Assembly: GCA_029212465.1 (NCBI GenBank)
Contig: JARGNV010000022.1
Coordinates: 1 to 33,136 of the forward strand
Source: Legionellaceae bacterium
GTDB lineage: Bacteria > Pseudomonadota > Gammaproteobacteria > Legionellales > Legionellaceae
Reading direction: 5' to 3'
Length of the DNA stretch: 33,136 bases
Of this stretch, positions 15,847-32,405 are shown piece by piece. Both the position numbers and the translations under genes were made by a program. How positions within the stretch are numbered: position 1 is the stretch's first letter; each line of letters starts with the position of its first letter. The notes beneath the pieces are model-generated. The model saw only the letters and a program-made list of their open reading frames with translations. It ran no database searches and had not been told where the DNA came from.

Positions 15847-17019
15847 ATGCATGACGAAACAGTTTTTTATACAATGTTCCTTATTTTTGCAGGGGCTGCG
15901 GTTTTATCAACGCTCGTGCTGTATACGCGCCAATCCCTCTTAGTTGCTTATATTTTGCTTGGGGCAGCACTGGGGCCTTGGGGGTTTAAGCTCATTACCG
16001 ACTTAAGTGCTGTGCGTCAAGTGGGTGATATTGGTATTGTCTTTTTGCTGTTTTTGCTAGGCCTTCACCTGCAGCCACAAAACTTATTACATATGTTAAA
16101 AAAGGTGACGTGGATTGCGCTGTTAAGCTCCTCATTTTTTGCGCTTTTGGCATATGGCATTGGGCGGTGGTTTGGGTTGTCGGTCAATGAGTCGTTAGTG
16201 CTTGGCGCATCGATGATGTTTTCTAGTACAATTATTGGATTGAAATTATTACCCACCACCATTTTACATCATCAGCACACAGGGGAAGTGATGATTAGTG
16301 TGTTGTTGATGCAAGATATCATCGCAATTGTTGTATTAATTTTAATTAATGGGGCGCAAAGTACGGGTGGGCTAACTTGGCGTGACTTGGTATCGGTGTG
16401 TATCACACTACCTGCTTTAATTTTCTTTGCCTTTGCAATTGAGCGTTATGTGCTTGTAAAGCTCTTGGCACGTTTTGATAGAACACAAGAATATGTATTT
16501 TTACTATCAATCGGTTGGTGCTTGGGGTTATCACTCTTAGCACTACAATTGGGATTATCAGAAGATATTGGTGCCTTTGTTGCAGGCGTTGCGCTTGCTT
16601 CTAGTCCGATTTCGCTCTTTATTGCTGAGAGTTTGAAGCCACTTAGAGATTTTTTCTTAGTGATGTTCTTTTTTGCTGTTGGCGCAACGTTTAATTTTGG
16701 GTTTGCTGCTCAGGTATTGATTCCTGCGTGTATGCTAGCGCTGCTTATGCTGGTATTTAAGCCGTTATGTTTTTATTTTATGTTGTATAAGGCAGGGGAA
16801 AAAAAAGCTGTTTCAAAAGAAGTTGGGGTGCGGCTTGGGCAGGCCAGTGAGTTTTCGTTGTTGGTTGCAAGCATTGCGTTGACAAGCCATTTGATTTCAG
16901 ATGTGGCGTCTAATTTAATTCAAGCGACGACGATTTTAACTTTTATTGTATCGTCTTATGTGGTGGTGTTGAAATATCCAACGCCTATGTCTTTTTCGGA
17001 TAAAATGCGAAAAGACTAA
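15847..17019 (+). CDS. CPA2-family cation:proton antiporter (KefB-like membrane domain)
   Basis: An inner-membrane exchanger of K+ or Na+ for protons. About eleven to thirteen hydrophobic segments are seen. Family hallmarks are LLGAALGPWG near residues 36-45, GIVFLLFLLGLHL near 62-74, the substrate-transport region LVLGASMMFSSTIIGLKLLP, and LSEDIGAFVAGVALASSP with the acidic transport residue. At 390 residues it consists only of the membrane domain; the C-terminal TrkA-N/RCK domain of KefB and KefC is missing, so glutathione or nucleotide gating is not expected. GGAGG at 15832-15836 precedes the ATG. It is in line with GDPD and the lipoprotein gene. Confidence 0.87.
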   Translation: MHDETVFYTMFLIFAGAAVLSTLVLYTRQSLLVAYILLGAALGPWGFKLITDLSAVRQVGDIGIVFLLFLLGLHLQPQNLLHMLKKVTWIALLSSSFFALLAYGIGRWFGLSVNESLVLGASMMFSSTIIGLKLLPTTILHHQHTGEVMISVLLMQDIIAIVVLILINGAQSTGGLTWRDLVSVCITLPALIFFAFAIERYVLVKLLARFDRTQEYVFLLSIGWCLGLSLLALQLGLSEDIGAFVAGVALASSPISLFIAESLKPLRDFFLVMFFFAVGATFNFGFAAQVLIPACMLALLMLVFKPLCFYFMLYKAGEKKAVSKEVGVRLGQASEFSLLVASIALTSHLISDVASNLIQATTILTFIVSSYVVVLKYPTPMSFSDKMRKD

Positions 17020-17042
17020 TATGATTCGTATAAGGGCTTATT

Positions 17043-17435
17043 ATGCAGCGATATAGTCGGTGGTTAGTTTATGCATTATTGATTTTTTTGGCTGGATGTT
17101 CTTTGTCACCCAAAGAGGATGCGAGGCGTGCACAGGCTGAAAGAGCGTGTGTTGATGAATGTAAAATAAAACTTGCTGCTTGTAAGCAGCGTTGTACTGA
17201 CAGCTGTAAACTATGTGAAAAAGCAAATCGCACACAGATGATTAAGCGTTACAAAACGTATATTCATGAGCAGTGTGTTCAAGGAAAGCGCGTGGCGCTT
17301 CAGTTGCAATCTTTTTATGATCCACTACAATGCCACAAAACATCGTGTGATTGCCCTGCAGATTATCGTGTTTGTGTTGGGGCATGTAGAGGTAAAATTC
17401 GAAAATACCTGCAAATTACGCCATTTTGCTGTTGA
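17043..17435 (+). CDS. Cysteine-rich lipoprotein of unknown function
   Basis: I do not recognise this family. Residues 1-19 form a lipoprotein signal peptide ending in the lipobox LAGC, with Cys19 as the lipidated residue, so the product should be anchored in a periplasm-facing membrane. The remaining 111 residues contain fourteen further cysteines, an even number suited to seven disulfides: C36, C40, C47, C51, C55, C58, C78, C97, C102, C104, C111, C115, C129 and C130. Several are spaced CxxxC (36/40, 47/51, 51/55, 111/115), and the chain ends in FCC. The protein is basic, with many Lys and Arg. It lies 23 bases after the antiporter gene and 51 before aceE. A redox or metal-binding envelope role is conceivable, but nothing in the sequence proves it. 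Confidence 0.75.
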   Translation: MQRYSRWLVYALLIFLAGCSLSPKEDARRAQAERACVDECKIKLAACKQRCTDSCKLCEKANRTQMIKRYKTYIHEQCVQGKRVALQLQSFYDPLQCHKTSCDCPADYRVCVGACRGKIRKYLQITPFCC

Positions 17436-17486
17436 TACTATTTTGTTGATGGCATGGTGTTATGTGTGGATTTGAGGACAATAAAT

Positions 17487-20153
17487 ATGGTGAATGAAAG
17501 TTTAAAAAAAGATACCGATCCAGCCGAAACCAGTGATTGGATTGATGCACTAGAGGCTGTTATTAAGATGCATGGCCCAGAGCGCGCAGGATTTTTAATG
17601 CAGCAGCTTTTGAGCGCTGCAGACAAGTCAGGGGTTTTGTTGCCGAGTGCGATTCATACGCCTTACCGAAATACCATCAAGCGCTCAGACGAAAAGCCAA
17701 TGCCACCTGATGAAGGCATTGGCAAACGCATTAGCGCATTGATTCGTTGGAATGCGGTTGCAATGGTGTTAAGAGCTGGTAAATATGCACCTGAACTTGG
17801 AGGGCATATTGCATCGTATGCATCTGCTTCAACATTGTATGAAACAGGGTTTAATTACTTCTTTAAAGGGCCAGAAACACCTGGAGGTGGAGACTTACTC
17901 TATATCCAAGGGCATTGTGCGCCTGGTATTTATGCACGTGCTTATCTCGAGGGGCGGTTGTCTGATGAGCAACTCGCACACTTCAGGCAAGAGGTAGAAG
18001 TAGATGGTTTGTCGTCTTATCCGCATCCGTGGCTTATGCAGCATTTTTGGCAGTTTCCAACAGTATCCATGGGACTTGGCCCCATTCAAGCCATTTATCA
18101 GGCACGGTTTTTGAAATATTTAGAAAACCGAGGCTTAATTGAAAGTAAAGGACGTAAAGTTTGGGCGTTTTTAGGGGATGGCGAAATGGATGAGCCTGAA
18201 TCTGTGGGCGCTTTATCGATTGCTGTCCGTGAAAAGCTAGATAACTTAATTTTTGTGGTGAATTGTAATTTGCAGCGCCTAGATGGCCCGGTTCGTGGCA
18301 ATGGAAAAATTATTCAAGAGCTTGAAGGACTATTTCGTGGGGCAGGCTGGCATGTGATTAAAGTCATTTGGGGTGGTCGTTGGGATGCTTTATTTGATAA
18401 AGATACTGACGGACTGATGCAGGCGCGAATGGAGGCTTGTGTTGATGGGGAGTATCAGAACTACAAAGGGAATGATGGCGCTTATGTACGAGAACATTTC
18501 TTTGGAGACTCACCTGAACTTAAAAAAATGGTTGAACACATGTCCGATGAGGAAATCTGGCGTTTAAACCGTGGTGGACACGATCCACAAAAAGTGTTTG
18601 CCGCTTATGCTGAAGCGGTTGCAACCGAAGGCGTTCCAACCGTTGTTTTAGCCAAAACAATTAAAGGCTATGGCATGGGAGCTGCTGGTGAAGCAATGAA
18701 TATTACGCATCAACAAAAAAAAATGAATGAAGAAGAGTTGCGTGTGTTCAGAGACCGGTTTAGCATTCCCGTGGGTGACGATGCGATTAAAGAGATACCG
18801 TTTTATCGTCCTGATGAAAATAGTCCTGAAAGACAATATTTGAAACAGCAAAGAGAAGCGCTGGGTGGCTGTTTACCTGCTAGAAACCCAACTTGCGATG
18901 CTTTAAATGCCCCTGACTTAGCAGCTTTTAAAGCGGTAACGGCAGGCCTTGGCGAGCGCGAGTTATCAACGACCATGGCGTTTGTACGTATTTTATCGGC
19001 GCTGTTGCGCGATAAAGAAATAGGAAAGCGTATTGTACCAATTGTACCAGACGAATCACGTACCTTTGGCATGGAAGGGCTATTCCGACAAATTGGTATT
19101 TACTCGCCTGTGGGGCAGCTGTATACACCCGTTGACCGAGATCAGGTAATGTATTATCGCGAAGCGAAAGAAGGCCAGATTTTAGAAGAGGGTATTAATG
19201 AAGCGGGTGCTTTTTGCTCGTGGATGGCCGCGGCAACTTCTTATGCCAATAATCATTATGCAATGATTCCATTCTACATTTATTATTCGATGTTTGGTTT
19301 TCAGCGCATAGGAGATTTGGCTTGGGCTGCAGGGGACATGCAGGCGCGAGGGTTTTTATTGGGTGCGACTGCAGGACGCACAACACTTGCAGGAGAAGGA
19401 CTACAGCATCAAGATGGCCACAGCCACTTAATGTCTTCAACCATTCCTAATTGTGTTTCTTACGACCCAACCTATGCGTATGAATTGGCAGTGATTATTC
19501 AAAATGGCTTGTATCGTATGTATGAAAAACAAGAAAATGTATTTTTCTACATTACAGTCATGAATGAAAATTATACGCACCCTGATATGCCAAAAGGGGT
19601 TGAAGCAGGTATTTTGAGAGGCATGTATTGCTTAAAGCCTTGTAAAAAACCAAACAAACAGCATGTGCAATTGATGGGGTCTGGCACCATTTTAAGAGAA
19701 GTTGAAGCAGCGGCGCGTCTTCTAAAAGAAGATTTTTCTATTTCTTCTGATATTTGGAGTGTGACCAGTTTCACAGAGCTTGCAAGAGATGGAATGGCGC
19801 TCGAGCGACATGCGCGCTTACATCCAAAAGAGAAAGTAGCACCTGCTTATGTTGCACAACAGTTAGCGGGTAAAAAAGGCCCTGTGATTGCCGCAACTGA
19901 TTATATGCGTGCATATGCAGACCAAATTAGACCGTTTGTGGAAGCACCTTATGTAACGCTTGGCACAGATGGTTATGGGCGCAGTGATACCCGTCAAAAG
20001 CTACGACACTTCTTTGAAGTGGATGCTAAATTTATTGTGCTTGCGGCTTTAAAAGCACTTGTTGATACAGGCGACTTACCTGCATCAACTGTGACAGATG
20101 CTATCAAACGGTATGGTATTGATCCTGATAAATTAAATCCTGCGACACATTAA
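17487..20153 (+). CDS. aceE: Pyruvate dehydrogenase E1 component, homodimeric type
   Basis: Thiamine-diphosphate enzyme that decarboxylates pyruvate and acetylates the E2 lipoyl group. The ThDP motif begins GDGEMDEPES at about 230 and ends NCNLQRLDGP at 259-268, the same positions as in E. coli. The substrate-loop region KTIKGYGMGAAGEAMNITHQ follows near 396-415. The C-terminal half has GEGLQHQDGHSHL and TLGTDGYGRSDTR, both hallmark AceE segments. From the ATG at 17487 the protein is 888 residues (E. coli 887); GAGGA at 17474-17478 supports this start over an in-frame ATG at 17454. It heads the operon aceE-aceF-lpd. A promoter could not be assigned in the 51 bases upstream, so it may lie within the lipoprotein gene. 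Confidence 0.97.
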   Translation: MVNESLKKDTDPAETSDWIDALEAVIKMHGPERAGFLMQQLLSAADKSGVLLPSAIHTPYRNTIKRSDEKPMPPDEGIGKRISALIRWNAVAMVLRAGKYAPELGGHIASYASASTLYETGFNYFFKGPETPGGGDLLYIQGHCAPGIYARAYLEGRLSDEQLAHFRQEVEVDGLSSYPHPWLMQHFWQFPTVSMGLGPIQAIYQARFLKYLENRGLIESKGRKVWAFLGDGEMDEPESVGALSIAVREKLDNLIFVVNCNLQRLDGPVRGNGKIIQELEGLFRGAGWHVIKVIWGGRWDALFDKDTDGLMQARMEACVDGEYQNYKGNDGAYVREHFFGDSPELKKMVEHMSDEEIWRLNRGGHDPQKVFAAYAEAVATEGVPTVVLAKTIKGYGMGAAGEAMNITHQQKKMNEEELRVFRDRFSIPVGDDAIKEIPFYRPDENSPERQYLKQQREALGGCLPARNPTCDALNAPDLAAFKAVTAGLGERELSTTMAFVRILSALLRDKEIGKRIVPIVPDESRTFGMEGLFRQIGIYSPVGQLYTPVDRDQVMYYREAKEGQILEEGINEAGAFCSWMAAATSYANNHYAMIPFYIYYSMFGFQRIGDLAWAAGDMQARGFLLGATAGRTTLAGEGLQHQDGHSHLMSSTIPNCVSYDPTYAYELAVIIQNGLYRMYEKQENVFFYITVMNENYTHPDMPKGVEAGILRGMYCLKPCKKPNKQHVQLMGSGTILREVEAAARLLKEDFSISSDIWSVTSFTELARDGMALERHARLHPKEKVAPAYVAQQLAGKKGPVIAATDYMRAYADQIRPFVEAPYVTLGTDGYGRSDTRQKLRHFFEVDAKFIVLAALKALVDTGDLPASTVTDAIKRYGIDPDKLNPATH

Positions 20154-28480: not shown

Positions 28481-29194
28481 TTAATTTTTAATTTCCTTTG
28501 CAGGAATCCCTTTTACTAGCTGATCTTCAGCAATATTACGTGTTACAAGCGCTGCAGCCCCAACAACTGTTCTGTAACCTATTTCAACGTCTGGTAATAT
28601 TTTTGCACCCAATCCAATAATGGCATCTTCTTTGATAAACTGACCTAATACATGGTCTCCATATCCTTCAGTAATTTTATTATCGTTTGCTGTACCAACA
28701 AGTGCACTGATAAATACATTATCTTCAATAACAGTGTTGCCAGTAATATGCGATAAATCCATAATTTTAACGTTATTTCCAACAGAAACATTGTAATTGA
28801 ATGTCACATAGCGACTAATAAGACAATGATTTCCAATTTTACATTGCTCTCTTATAGATGCACCGTCTCCAATGAGCGTGTTACTTCCAATTTCCACATC
28901 ATAATAAATAACGGCATGGGGACAAATAGACGAACCTTTTCCAATGTTTATAAATTTTTTGTATTCGATTGGGCGTGCTGTACTTCCAGCTCCTTTAGGC
29001 TCTTTTCCAATAACTGCACCATGAAATACTTCAACGTCAGATGCAATGACAACAGCATCTCCAATGTAAGCATGCGGATGAATGGTGCATCCCTCATCTA
29101 TGACGCAATCACCAATTACACAATAGGAACCAATTGTGACATTTTTGCCAATTTTTGCATTGGGGCTAATTATTGCTGTTTTACAAATAGTCAA
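28481..29194 (-). CDS. Left-handed beta-helix (hexapeptide) sugar acyltransferase
   Basis: A 237-residue protein made almost wholly of hexapeptide repeats ([LIV]-G-x4) that fold as a left-handed beta helix: ISPNAKIGKNVTIGSYCVIG at the start, repeated through VEIGSNTLIGDGASI, CKIGNHCLISRYV and ILPDVEIGYRTVVGAAALVT at the end. Such trimeric enzymes transfer acetyl or other acyl groups to sugars, amino sugars or serine. The C-terminal KGIPAKEIKN is the typical closing motif of sugar O- or N-acetyltransferases. The start is TTG at 29194, fixed by GAGGAG six bases upstream. The specific substrate is not readable; LPS or capsule modification is likely from the general family and the nearby GT-C-like gene, but not proven. 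Confidence 0.85.
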   Translation of the reverse strand: MTICKTAIISPNAKIGKNVTIGSYCVIGDCVIDEGCTIHPHAYIGDAVVIASDVEVFHGAVIGKEPKGAGSTARPIEYKKFINIGKGSSICPHAVIYYDVEIGSNTLIGDGASIREQCKIGNHCLISRYVTFNYNVSVGNNVKIMDLSHITGNTVIEDNVFISALVGTANDNKITEGYGDHVLGQFIKEDAIIGLGAKILPDVEIGYRTVVGAAALVTRNIAEDQLVKGIPAKEIKN

Positions 29195-30695: not shown

Positions 30696-32405
30696 ATGGT
30701 AAGAAAAGGACTTTCTTCATTTTGGGGTGAACAAAATCTTCAAACAAATCATATTTTGAAAAAATATGGCAATGAAGTTTACAACCTTATCATTTTTTGC
30801 TTCATTTCAAGTTACATTATTTCATTGCGTTATTTTTTCCCACTATACTGGGATACAAACGATGATATTTTTATGTCGATGATTGCGCATGGTTATGGTC
30901 TTGCTGAAGTAGGTTCTCCTTTGCTTGTTTTTTCTAATGTGATTTGGGGATATTTAGTAAGAGCAATTCCTGATATATATGGATTTGTAGGATACTCTAT
31001 TGCTACTTTCGTAGTTTTATTAATGGTTGGTTTAGCTATTTTCCATAGCCTGCGAAAAATAGGGCCGGACCTTATTATCTCACTTCTTGCGACAAGCTTT
31101 GTCTTGCTCGCACCAACCGTTTTTCCGCAGTTTACTATTAATGCCGGATTATGTATGGTGGCGTTTGTATTAATTTTACAAGTAATCAATTTAGAGCAGG
31201 ATAGTATTCCTTATCATTGGCTATTTAGCGCTATATTCTTTGCTTGTCTGGGTTATTTAATCAGGCGAGAAGAGTTTTTTCTTATCTTAGGCGTTGCTGC
31301 GCCTTTCCTTCCATGGAAATTATTACTGAAGAAAAAAGAGCTTCGAATGATGGTTATAATCATTTTTGTATTTATTGGAGGAGCTACTTTTTTCGATCAT
31401 ATTAGTTATTCAGGAGAGGGTTGGCAACATTATTTTGAAGTTAATTCTGCTAGAATTTCTTATACCGACTATGGGGCTGGTGCATTACTAGAAAATCACC
31501 CAGAAATTTTAGCTCGTCACGATTATTCACCAAATGACATTAGTCTTATCTCGAATTTTTTCTTTGCTGATCCTAGCATAACAACGACTAGTAAGTTGAA
31601 TGCTTTATTAAATAAGTTGGACTATCATTTTTATGGTGATGCCTCGAACCTTTGGCGTTCCGTGAAAGCAGCACTGTCCTGCTTGCGAATCCTTCCGTTA
31701 TTATTATCCGCGATTTTACTTCTTGTTTTTTATCCGTCAAAAAAGCTATGTATTTCATGGCTTATTTTTATACTATCTTTCTGCCTGATTGGTTTCTTGG
31801 GTAGGTCGTTTACAGTGCGCATTTATATACCAATAATTAGTTTATTATTTTTATTTGGTGTAGTTAATTCATACCAATACCCAAGTAATTTTGTTCGACA
31901 AAATGCGAAGCTTATATGCAAAGGAGTAATATTATTTTTTATTATATGTGGTTTTTTGATCACTTATTTACAAGCTATAAACAGAAAAAAACTTATTAAA
32001 GATGCACAAACTAGGGTTATCCATTTTCCCCACGAAGTTATTACTATGTGGGGTAACTTTCCAGTGCAGTATATTTATACTCCTACCACAAGAAATCCTT
32101 CAAATTTCAATCTCAAAATTTATGGCTTAGATTTGTCAACCTTAGCTCCTTTTTCAGTTGCTTATCACGAGGAATTAGCGCAACGTGGATTTGTAAAAAA
32201 AATCTTATCATCAGGTGTACTTATTGTAGAAAATAACAGACACCATTTGTTAAAGACTTGGTGTAGAGAACATTTTAATGGCGAGTTGGAGGAAAAACTG
32301 ATAAATCTTTCTTATAACAAAAAGAGCCCATTAGCCTCTCAATTCCAAATACAGCGAGTTCGCTGTATAAAAGGCAATGACAGAGATTTTAGTCGTGGAA
32401 TTTGA
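30696..32405 (+). CDS. Large polytopic membrane protein, GT-C glycosyltransferase-like
   Basis: I cannot name this family with certainty. The 569-residue protein has about ten hydrophobic segments across residues 28-430, then a soluble C-terminal region of about 130 residues ending near KGNDRDF. The first periplasmic loop holds WDTNDDIF at about 53-60; an acidic pair in that place is typical of GT-C lipid-linked-sugar glycosyltransferases, and the topology (large loop, later membrane bundle, soluble tail) also fits. GGAG lies about seven bases before the ATG at 30696. The gene is A+T rich relative to its left-hand neighbours and stands alone between the micro-ORF and the decarboxylase, so it may be horizontally acquired envelope-sugar machinery. 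A plain unknown membrane protein is the alternative. Confidence 0.6.
   Translation: MVRKGLSSFWGEQNLQTNHILKKYGNEVYNLIIFCFISSYIISLRYFFPLYWDTNDDIFMSMIAHGYGLAEVGSPLLVFSNVIWGYLVRAIPDIYGFVGYSIATFVVLLMVGLAIFHSLRKIGPDLIISLLATSFVLLAPTVFPQFTINAGLCMVAFVLILQVINLEQDSIPYHWLFSAIFFACLGYLIRREEFFLILGVAAPFLPWKLLLKKKELRMMVIIIFVFIGGATFFDHISYSGEGWQHYFEVNSARISYTDYGAGALLENHPEILARHDYSPNDISLISNFFFADPSITTTSKLNALLNKLDYHFYGDASNLWRSVKAALSCLRILPLLLSAILLLVFYPSKKLCISWLIFILSFCLIGFLGRSFTVRIYIPIISLLFLFGVVNSYQYPSNFVRQNAKLICKGVILFFIICGFLITYLQAINRKKLIKDAQTRVIHFPHEVITMWGNFPVQYIYTPTTRNPSNFNLKIYGLDLSTLAPFSVAYHEELAQRGFVKKILSSGVLIVENNRHHLLKTWCREHFNGELEEKLINLSYNKKSPLASQFQIQRVRCIKGNDRDFSRGI

What the first reader, a model, noticed from the sequence alone, without database searches (positions are those of the whole stretch)
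17043..17435. Unrecognised cysteine-rich lipoprotein beside aceE
A 130-residue predicted lipoprotein has the lipid Cys plus fourteen others, many spaced CxxxC, and a terminal CC. The even count suggests disulfide knots or metal clusters on the envelope. I cannot place the family.
Basis: partly seen in the sequence, partly recalled or inferred. Interest (0 to 1): 0.6.

Follow-up and report, generated by a model that had tools for sequence, protein, structure and literature searches.

The report
Disulfide-laddered envelope lipoprotein of Legionellaceae
A small lipid-anchored envelope protein of Legionella relatives belongs to an unnamed family whose cysteines come and go in pairs, which suggests that its helices are stapled together by a ladder of disulfide bonds; its job in the cell is still unknown.

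Summary
Window 17043-17435 encodes a 130-residue lipoprotein (LAGC lipobox) with the lipid cysteine plus 14 others, just upstream of aceE. It is a real gene: 127 of 143 same-family genomes have a match (three are fragments), and dN/dS is 0.05-0.21 in eleven pairs. In 79 aligned members nine non-lipid cysteines are invariant and a tenth, C36, is kept in 78. The terminal CC is not conserved.

It belongs to a wider family (profile match 98.9%) for which I found no Pfam, NCBIfam or PDB match. Cysteines are gained and lost in pairs. C51 and C102 are both present in 112 and both absent in 12 of 124 members, never one alone. The 8 of 80 rows without C55 all lack C129. This favours disulfides over metal clusters. 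The best model is a helical hairpin stapled by five or six disulfides, probably on the outer membrane.

The place beside aceE is old, but aceE persists where the gene is missing or decayed, so a role in pyruvate dehydrogenase is unlikely. What the protein does is not shown. It is an uncatalogued family, a mirror-image CX3CX6C/CX6CX3C variant of known disulfide helix hairpins.

The parts
17043..17435 (+). cysteine-rich lipoprotein gene, 130 aa, stop codon included
   Evidence: homologues; dN/dS
17032..17036 (+). AAGGG, likely ribosome-binding site, 6 nt before the ATG
   Evidence: read from the sequence; inference
17043..17096 (+). lipoprotein signal peptide, residues 1-18, ending LAG before the lipid Cys
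   Evidence: Cys at this column in 79 of 79 rows; the residue after it is never Asp in 79 rows
17097..17099 (+). lipid-acceptor Cys19
17148..17216 (+). first cysteine block, residues 36-58: C-x3-C-x6-C-x3-C-x3-C-x2-C, helix 1 and turn
   Evidence: helix 23-50 in the AlphaFold2 model
17310..17387 (+). second cysteine block, residues 90-115: S-F-Y-D-P-L-Q-C-H-K-T-S-C-D-C-x6-C-x3-C. S90, P94, L95, Q96, K99 and D107 are invariant in 79 rows
   Evidence: helices 94-100 and 104-115
17427..17432 (+). C129 and C130. C129 is missing in every row that lacks C55; C130 is not conserved
15847..17019 (+). cation:proton antiporter gene immediately upstream
   Evidence: found upstream in 77 of 78 homologous loci; product name from the record of L. 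adelaidensis
17487..20153 (+). aceE, pyruvate dehydrogenase E1, immediately downstream
   Evidence: downstream on the same strand in 78 of 78 loci; estimated gap -4 to 89 bp, median 25, in 77 loci

Best explanation
The gene makes a small lipoprotein that is exported, lipidated on Cys19 and probably sorted to the outer membrane. In the oxidising periplasm it folds into a helical hairpin whose first helix and turn (C36, C40, C47, C51, C58) are stapled antiparallel to the C-terminal helices (C115, C111, C104, C102, C97) by up to five disulfides, with a sixth (C55-C129) pinning the tail. Shown by computation: the gene is under purifying selection; nine non-lipid Cys are invariant in 79 rows and a tenth nearly so; C51/C102 and C55/C129 behave as pairs. 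Inferred: the other partners (36-115, 40-111, 47-104, 58-97), from the mirror-image spacing CX3CX6C / CX6CX3C, from the predicted contact 54-102 and from a minimal six-Cys relative. Also inferred: that it works as a rigid scaffold or adaptor of the envelope, presenting the conserved S-x-x-D-P-L-Q-C-x-K loop to a partner, rather than as a metal store or enzyme. The partner is unknown. The link to aceE is probably an old gene order with shared transcription, not a role in pyruvate dehydrogenase.
For: (1) Pairwise gain and loss. C51 and C102: 112 members have both, 12 have neither, 0 have one, of 124; a recount with 12 more members gives 123, 12 and 1 of 136, and the one odd row (L077) is mis-anchored by that script because its C36 is Phe; read as it has both. 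C55 and C129: the 8 rows without C55 all lack C129, of 80; 7 changes of C55 on an aceE tree; Fisher p 1.7e-8 without correction for relatedness. Members without C55 have 0 or 2 tail Cys (18 and 34), never 1. (2) An even number of non-lipid Cys in 59 of 79 rows, 42 of them with exactly 12. (3) Of all 120 pairings of the two five-Cys blocks, the antiparallel order 36-115, 40-111, 47-104, 51-102, 58-97 has the most constant register, with sums 151, 151, 151, 153, 155. (4) Both AlphaFold2 models are helical, and each has only two bridge residues, 54 and 102, which must therefore face each other. (5) A minimal relative, L145, has a hairpin with just CX3CX6C plus CX6CX3C. (6) Lipobox Cys in 79 of 79 rows, never Asp at +2. 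(7) dN/dS 0.05-0.21 in eleven pairs. (8) aceE is retained where the gene is missing or a remnant.
Against: C40, C47, C104, C111 and C115 anchor the count, so their constancy there is by construction, and with C36 they hardly vary within Legionellaceae, so there is no co-variation test of their partners. The mirror register is only mildly unusual: 4.7% of random ladders score as well and 29.5% reach three equal sums. The phylogeny-aware test of C55/C129 has only 5 supported independent pairs and does not reach significance, and 4 rows lack C129 while keeping C55. The 12 members lacking C51/C102 may reflect few events. L077 lacks C36 and L140 lacks the first Cys while keeping the proposed partner. 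Twenty of 79 rows have an odd number of non-lipid Cys, so at least one thiol is free or intermolecular there. The models are of middling quality (pTM 0.54), and I had no coordinates with which to measure Cys-Cys distances. Nothing shows a function.
Confidence: 0.6

Rival explanations
1. A periplasmic Cu(I) or Zn thiolate store, working like Csp1 (four-helix bundle with core cysteines).
For: Cys at i, i+4, i+11, i+15 would line one face of a helix (inference). Csp1 of M. trichosporium binds 13 Cu(I) ions in a four-helix bundle (passages of PMC7558416).
Against: No Pfam or NCBIfam match to any metal-store model. Csp1 carries a Tat signal (PMC7558416 passages), not a lipobox. Pairwise loss of Cys is expected of disulfides, not of a cluster. 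No metal gene that I recognised, by eye, among near neighbours.
Confidence: 0.1
2. A cross-linker of the envelope, working like the cysteine-rich chlamydial proteins OmcA and OmcB: extra cysteines (C78, C130) form disulfides between molecules.
For: Small cysteine-rich outer-membrane lipoprotein, as described for OmcA (PMC2811131 passages). 20 of 79 rows have an odd number of non-lipid Cys. L. pneumophila has an essential periplasmic disulfide oxidoreductase/isomerase, DsbA2 (PMC4273665 passages).
Against: C78 and C130 vary (24 and 20 of 79), while the even core is what is conserved. OmcA was not aligned here.
Confidence: 0.13
3. A thiol redox sensor or relay whose CxxxC pairs cycle between oxidised and reduced forms.
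For: Several CxxxC steps. In L. adelaidensis a thioredoxin-family gene lies about 8 kb downstream, too far to weigh much.
Against: No match to a redox family in Pfam or NCBIfam and no significant fold match. Paired Cys are simply dropped together in some members, which suits structural disulfides.
Confidence: 0.07
4. A functional partner of pyruvate dehydrogenase or of its operon.
For: Next to aceE in 78 of 78 fetched Legionellaceae loci and in members from four other families.
Against: AceE is cytosolic (established knowledge) and this protein is exported. aceE persists in all 11 genomes checked, although in 5 of them no such gene stands upstream or is found elsewhere with the profile, and in two more genomes only a remnant is left. 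Other family members stand elsewhere.
Confidence: 0.04

Closest known systems
Small Tim proteins (twin CX3C) of mitochondria
   Same: Helix-loop-helix in which two helices are joined by disulfides C1-C4 and C2-C3 between two CX3C motifs (PMC3759932 passages). Our C36-x3-C40 and C111-x3-C115 would pair in the same way.
   Different: No sequence relation was found. Here each side has a further Cys at a 6-residue spacing, five or six disulfides are proposed, and there is a lipid anchor and a bacterial periplasm. Resemblance of layout only.
Chlamydial OmcA, 9 kDa cysteine-rich outer-membrane lipoprotein
   Same: Small, cysteine-rich, lipidated, in the outer membrane of an intracellular bacterium (PMC2811131 passages).
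   Different: No alignment was tested. Here the conserved Cys number is even and pair-wise, which suits intramolecular bonds.
Csp1 copper storage proteins
   Same: Helical, periplasmic, many Cys on helix faces (PMC7558416 passages).
   Different: Tat signal instead of a lipobox; no family match seen; here Cys co-vary in pairs.
PF18534 HBD, helical bundle domain
   Same: The only Pfam hit of the window protein, E 0.035 over residues 43-99.
   Different: 14.7 bits against a cut-off of 32.9, so not a member by Pfam's rule.

Membership tests
Family described here: CX3CX6C / CX6CX3C lipoproteins of Gammaproteobacteria | Lipobox Cys followed by C-x3-C-x6-C and, later, C-x6-C-x3-C | tested here: met
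   The window protein has both, and 78 of 79 Legionellaceae rows have all of these Cys. The wider members were partly picked by these motifs, so their having them is no independent test
Family described here: CX3CX6C / CX6CX3C lipoproteins of Gammaproteobacteria | Profile similarity between the Legionellaceae set and the wider set | tested here: met
   hhalign probability 98.9, E 1.4e-17 over 125 columns; the wide profile alone finds the window protein at E 8.3e-10
Small Tim / twin CX3C | Sequence relation to Tim9/Tim10 or other solved twin-CX3C chains | tested here: inconclusive
   No PDB sequence match for the protein or the wide profile, two weak unrelated ones (E 0.51, 1.1) for the 79-row profile; Foldseek found nothing at E <= 0.001
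Small Tim / twin CX3C | Antiparallel helices joined by mirrored disulfides | tested here: inconclusive
   Register and predicted contact 54-102 fit; no coordinates were available for Cys distances
Csp copper storage | Match to a curated copper-storage family model | tested here: inconclusive
   No such match in Pfam or NCBIfam at E up to 10; I did not check that either library holds such a model
Csp copper storage | Binds many Cu(I) ions | not testable with these tools
   Needs protein chemistry
PF18534 HBD | Score above Pfam's gathering cut-off | tested here: not met
   14.7 bits against 32.9
OmcA-like envelope cross-linkers | Intermolecular disulfides in the outer membrane | not testable with these tools
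   Needs gels or mass spectrometry; OmcA was not aligned
Bacterial lipoproteins (signal peptidase II substrates) | Hydrophobic signal peptide ending in a lipobox with invariant Cys | tested here: met
   LAGC at 16-19; Cys in 79 of 79 rows

The most novel reading that the evidence does not exclude
A bacterial outer-membrane counterpart, evolved independently, of the mitochondrial twin-CX3C chaperones: a lipid-tethered, disulfide-laddered helix hairpin that holds or guides unfolded envelope proteins, scattered through Gammaproteobacteria without a name and near-universal in Legionellaceae.
Probability: 0.07. Interest if true: 0.75.

Novelty: new variant of a known kind. Interest (0 to 1): 0.42.

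Why it matters
The protein is near-universal in Legionellaceae (108 of 117 good genomes, three of them fragments) and under strong selection. Yet I found no match above cut-off in Pfam, NCBIfam or the PDB, and no paper on it in the listings I saw. If the ladder model holds, it adds a very heavily disulfide-bonded substrate of the periplasmic Dsb system in a family whose best-studied species has an essential DsbA2 (PMC4273665 passages). The paired losses make parts of the disulfide map predictable and so directly testable by mass spectrometry.

Tried and rejected
Family libraries: Pfam, NCBIfam, PADLOC and PHROGs gave nothing above cut-off for the window protein. Pfam with six wide-family members gave none above cut-off, NCBIfam with three of those six likewise. 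PDB by sequence: no match for the single protein or the wide profile, two weak unrelated ones for the 79-row profile.

Fold search: Foldseek against the PDB with two models gave no match at E <= 0.001. VIA-align's best Z was 4.8 and 5.3. The best row, a chain of a YbjP-MacAB-TolC entry, is of a size the tool calls usual for helical models, and I do not use it.

Mobile origin: no phage match. The single plasmid-collection match is a Legionella adelaidensis record that carries housekeeping genes in the same order, so it is not evidence of mobility.

aceE partnership: rejected as above. Promoter and terminator scan of 16850-17600: 4 promoter-like sites (2.4 expected) and 2 terminator-like sites (0.6 expected). 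None lies between this gene and aceE. One plus-strand promoter-like site is inside this gene (17304-17331), and one plus-strand terminator-like site is near the end of the antiporter gene (16965-16985). These are consensus matches only, so shared transcription with aceE remains an inference.

Metal cluster: weakened by paired losses, not excluded. I considered pairing C78 with C130: they co-occur in 14 of 24 rows with C78, but 6 rows have C130 without C78 and 10 have C78 without C130 (tallied), so I do not claim it.

Papers: 34 papers hold Legionella, cysteine-rich and lipoprotein; 15 listings seen, none on this protein by title or start of abstract. 128 hold five of six related terms; 10 listings seen, likewise. 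None for a locus tag guessed from memory, none for AmpE, aceE and Legionella together, none for twin CX3C, disulfide, bacteria and lipoprotein. Four papers were opened, passages only: PMC4273665, PMC3759932, PMC7558416, PMC2811131.

Rows left out of the 124-member count: L157, L159, L162, L169, L170 (near copies of Legionella paralogues kept in); L143, L148, L175-L177, L179-L181 (genes already in, or close copies of them); L014, L020, L021, L022, L024, L196, L206 (further Legionellaceae members); L144, L146, L150-L152 (fragments, no usable frame, or second parts of genes already in). One search put the first five and the seven further members back: 136 members, 123 with both C51 and C102, 12 with neither, 1 odd. 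The odd row, L077, is an anchoring error of that script (its C36 is Phe); the same row is concordant. In one search members without C55 have 0 (19), 1 (1, the same L077 error) or 2 (39) tail Cys. The pair hypothesis C51/C102 was first seen in L136 and L046, which are in the count. The rule for C102 (a Cys within four residues before C104) was written after looking at the sequences; L149 and L197 meet only this loose rule. L149 is a weak member (E 2.8e-4, partial match). Three rows of the 79-row alignment (L060, L067, L113) have no start codon chosen.

Full report
Observation. The ORF at 17043-17435 is as described: 130 aa, lipobox LAGC, 15 Cys in all, 14 besides the lipid one, ending in CC. 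The 29 other window ORFs that I picked average 1.35% Cys. The window is a 33,136-base contig of a 1.98 Mb genome. Its relatives are Legionellaceae: the 78 loci found in named genomes are Legionella species, Fluoribacter gormanii, or metagenome-assembled genomes, most of them labelled Legionella, Tatlockia, Legionellaceae or Legionellales and a few only Gammaproteobacteria or Proteobacteria.

Is it a gene? Yes. In a first search 25 of 31 same-family genomes (own included) match at E below 1e-14, and 4 of 21 more distant genomes match only weakly, E 0.06-0.33. With the 79-row profile, 127 of 143 family genomes match at E <= 1e-5, 108 of 117 among the good assemblies. Three of the 127 (G441, G467, G474) are fragments of 23 to 45 positions. 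Pairwise dN/dS in eleven pairs is 0.05-0.21.

Conservation. In 79 aligned rows, C19, C40, C47, C51, C58, C97, C102, C104, C111 and C115 are invariant. C36 is kept in 78, C55 in 72 and C129 in 68, but C78 in 24 and C130 in only 20. Non-Cys positions S90, P94, L95, Q96, K99 and D107 are invariant too, marking the loop S-x-x-D-P-L-Q-C-x-K as a likely functional surface (inference). The residue after the lipid Cys is never Asp; by the E. coli sorting rule (recalled) this points to the outer membrane.

Neighbourhood. aceE is the next gene on the same strand in 78 of 78 loci and the antiporter lies upstream in 77 of 78. The estimated gap to aceE is -4 to 89 bp, median 25, in 77 loci (L060 was left out because its aceE match is partial). 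In five loci that I read (L058, L066, L069, L072, L111) a gene stands between antiporter and lipoprotein, and the spacing suggests the same in many others. The record of L. adelaidensis names it AmpE; the lipoprotein ORF is present there, but no gene is listed for it in that table, which is known to be incomplete. The window lacks an AmpE gene at this place; the rest of its genome was not searched for one. In members from four other families of the class (G050, G054, G129, G143) a relative also stands next to aceE, in G129, G143 and G054 after a gene whose first residues look like AmpE by eye.

The gene is not needed for aceE. Eleven family genomes that an earlier search had missed all keep aceE. 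Five have no such ORF upstream (L203, L205, L207 and the two 0.5 Mb genomes L210 and L211), three do have it (L204, L206, and L208 in a divergent form), and in three the upstream part is cut off. The five also have no match elsewhere with the 79-row profile (G440, G024, G436, G023, G403). In two further genomes only about 20 residues remain at the place.

Wider family. Profiles found relatives in other Gammaproteobacteria: 15 of 274 class genomes (E <= 0.01), 24 of 369 with the wide profile (E <= 0.001) and 8 of 299 in the phylum (E <= 1e-4); in the order, 91 of 140. These tallies include Legionellaceae. The two sets are homologous by profile comparison (98.9%, E 1.4e-17). About two dozen genomes of one Legionella group (g15) carry a second, wide-type copy at another place. 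In seven genomes with free-standing members that I fetched outside Legionellaceae, I saw no shared neighbour by eye, except between G103 and G332, which are of one family and share at least two nearby genes. The wide type usually has Y-x-PP after the lipid Cys, CGG after the last helix and a C-x3-C tail (ten rows).

Pairs. Counting 124 members, C51 and C102 are both there in 112 and both gone in 12; no member has just one. A recount of 136 gives 123, 12 and one odd row, L077, which that script mis-anchors. Members without C55 have 0 or 2 tail cysteines (18 and 34), never 1; members with C55 have 1 (48), 2 (20) or 0 (4). Within Legionellaceae, 8 of 80 rows lack C55 and all 8 lack C129, while 4 more lack C129 alone. 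On an aceE tree this needs 7 changes of C55 and 10 of C129. The stricter test on well-supported branches has 5 pairs, on average 4.4 concordant and none opposite, which cannot reach significance. Paired loss is what structural disulfides predict.

Shape. Both AlphaFold2 models (pLDDT 81 and 76, pTM 0.54 each) have helices at about 23-50, 55-80, 94-100 and 104-115 and a single bridge between residues 54 and 102 (the second model starts at residue 27). The spacing C36-x3-C40-x6-C47 is the exact mirror of C104-x6-C111-x3-C115, giving constant sums of 151; 51-102 and 58-97 follow at 153 and 155. A random-spacing control shows that this alone is weak evidence: 4.7% of random ladders do as well in overall register, 29.5% reach three equal sums. 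The minimal relative L145 keeps only the two mirrored triplets. The layout recalls the twin-CX3C hairpins of mitochondrial small Tim proteins, with bonds C1-C4 and C2-C3 (PMC3759932 passages), but no sequence or fold relation was found.

Verdict. A real, conserved lipoprotein family that the libraries searched do not name; the disulfide reading is favoured, the exact map is partly inferred, the function is unknown. The best guess is a rigid scaffold or adaptor of the outer membrane. Some of the early excitement (terminal CC, metal clusters, a working link to aceE) does not hold up; the paired cysteines do.

Noticed in passing
L126, L153-L172 (free-standing copies in Legionella genomes): About two dozen genomes of one Legionella group (g15) carry a second member of the family away from aceE, of the wide type with Y-x-PP and CGG motifs.
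   Followed up: partly
window 17019-17043 versus L058, L066, L069, L072, L111: An AmpE-like gene stands between antiporter and lipoprotein in the five loci read but not in the window, where only 23 bases separate the two genes.
   Followed up: partly
L183-L188 and L195: Free-standing wide-type members in other Gammaproteobacteria, several with about 60 or more extra residues between the two cysteine blocks; neighbours look different except between G103 and G332.
   Followed up: no
L191:6790-7619: Two tandem family members before aceE in one genome, one with and one without the C51/C102 pair.
   Followed up: partly
L196 (NZ_LR134428.1): A Legionella adelaidensis record labelled 'plasmid 19' carries aceEF-lpdA and adk, so it may be a mislabelled chromosome piece.
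   Followed up: no
window 28481-29194 and 30696-32405: Two ORFs with lower G+C (36% and 34%) and lower third-position G+C (22% and 27%) than the other ORFs picked in the window, perhaps of foreign origin.
   Followed up: no
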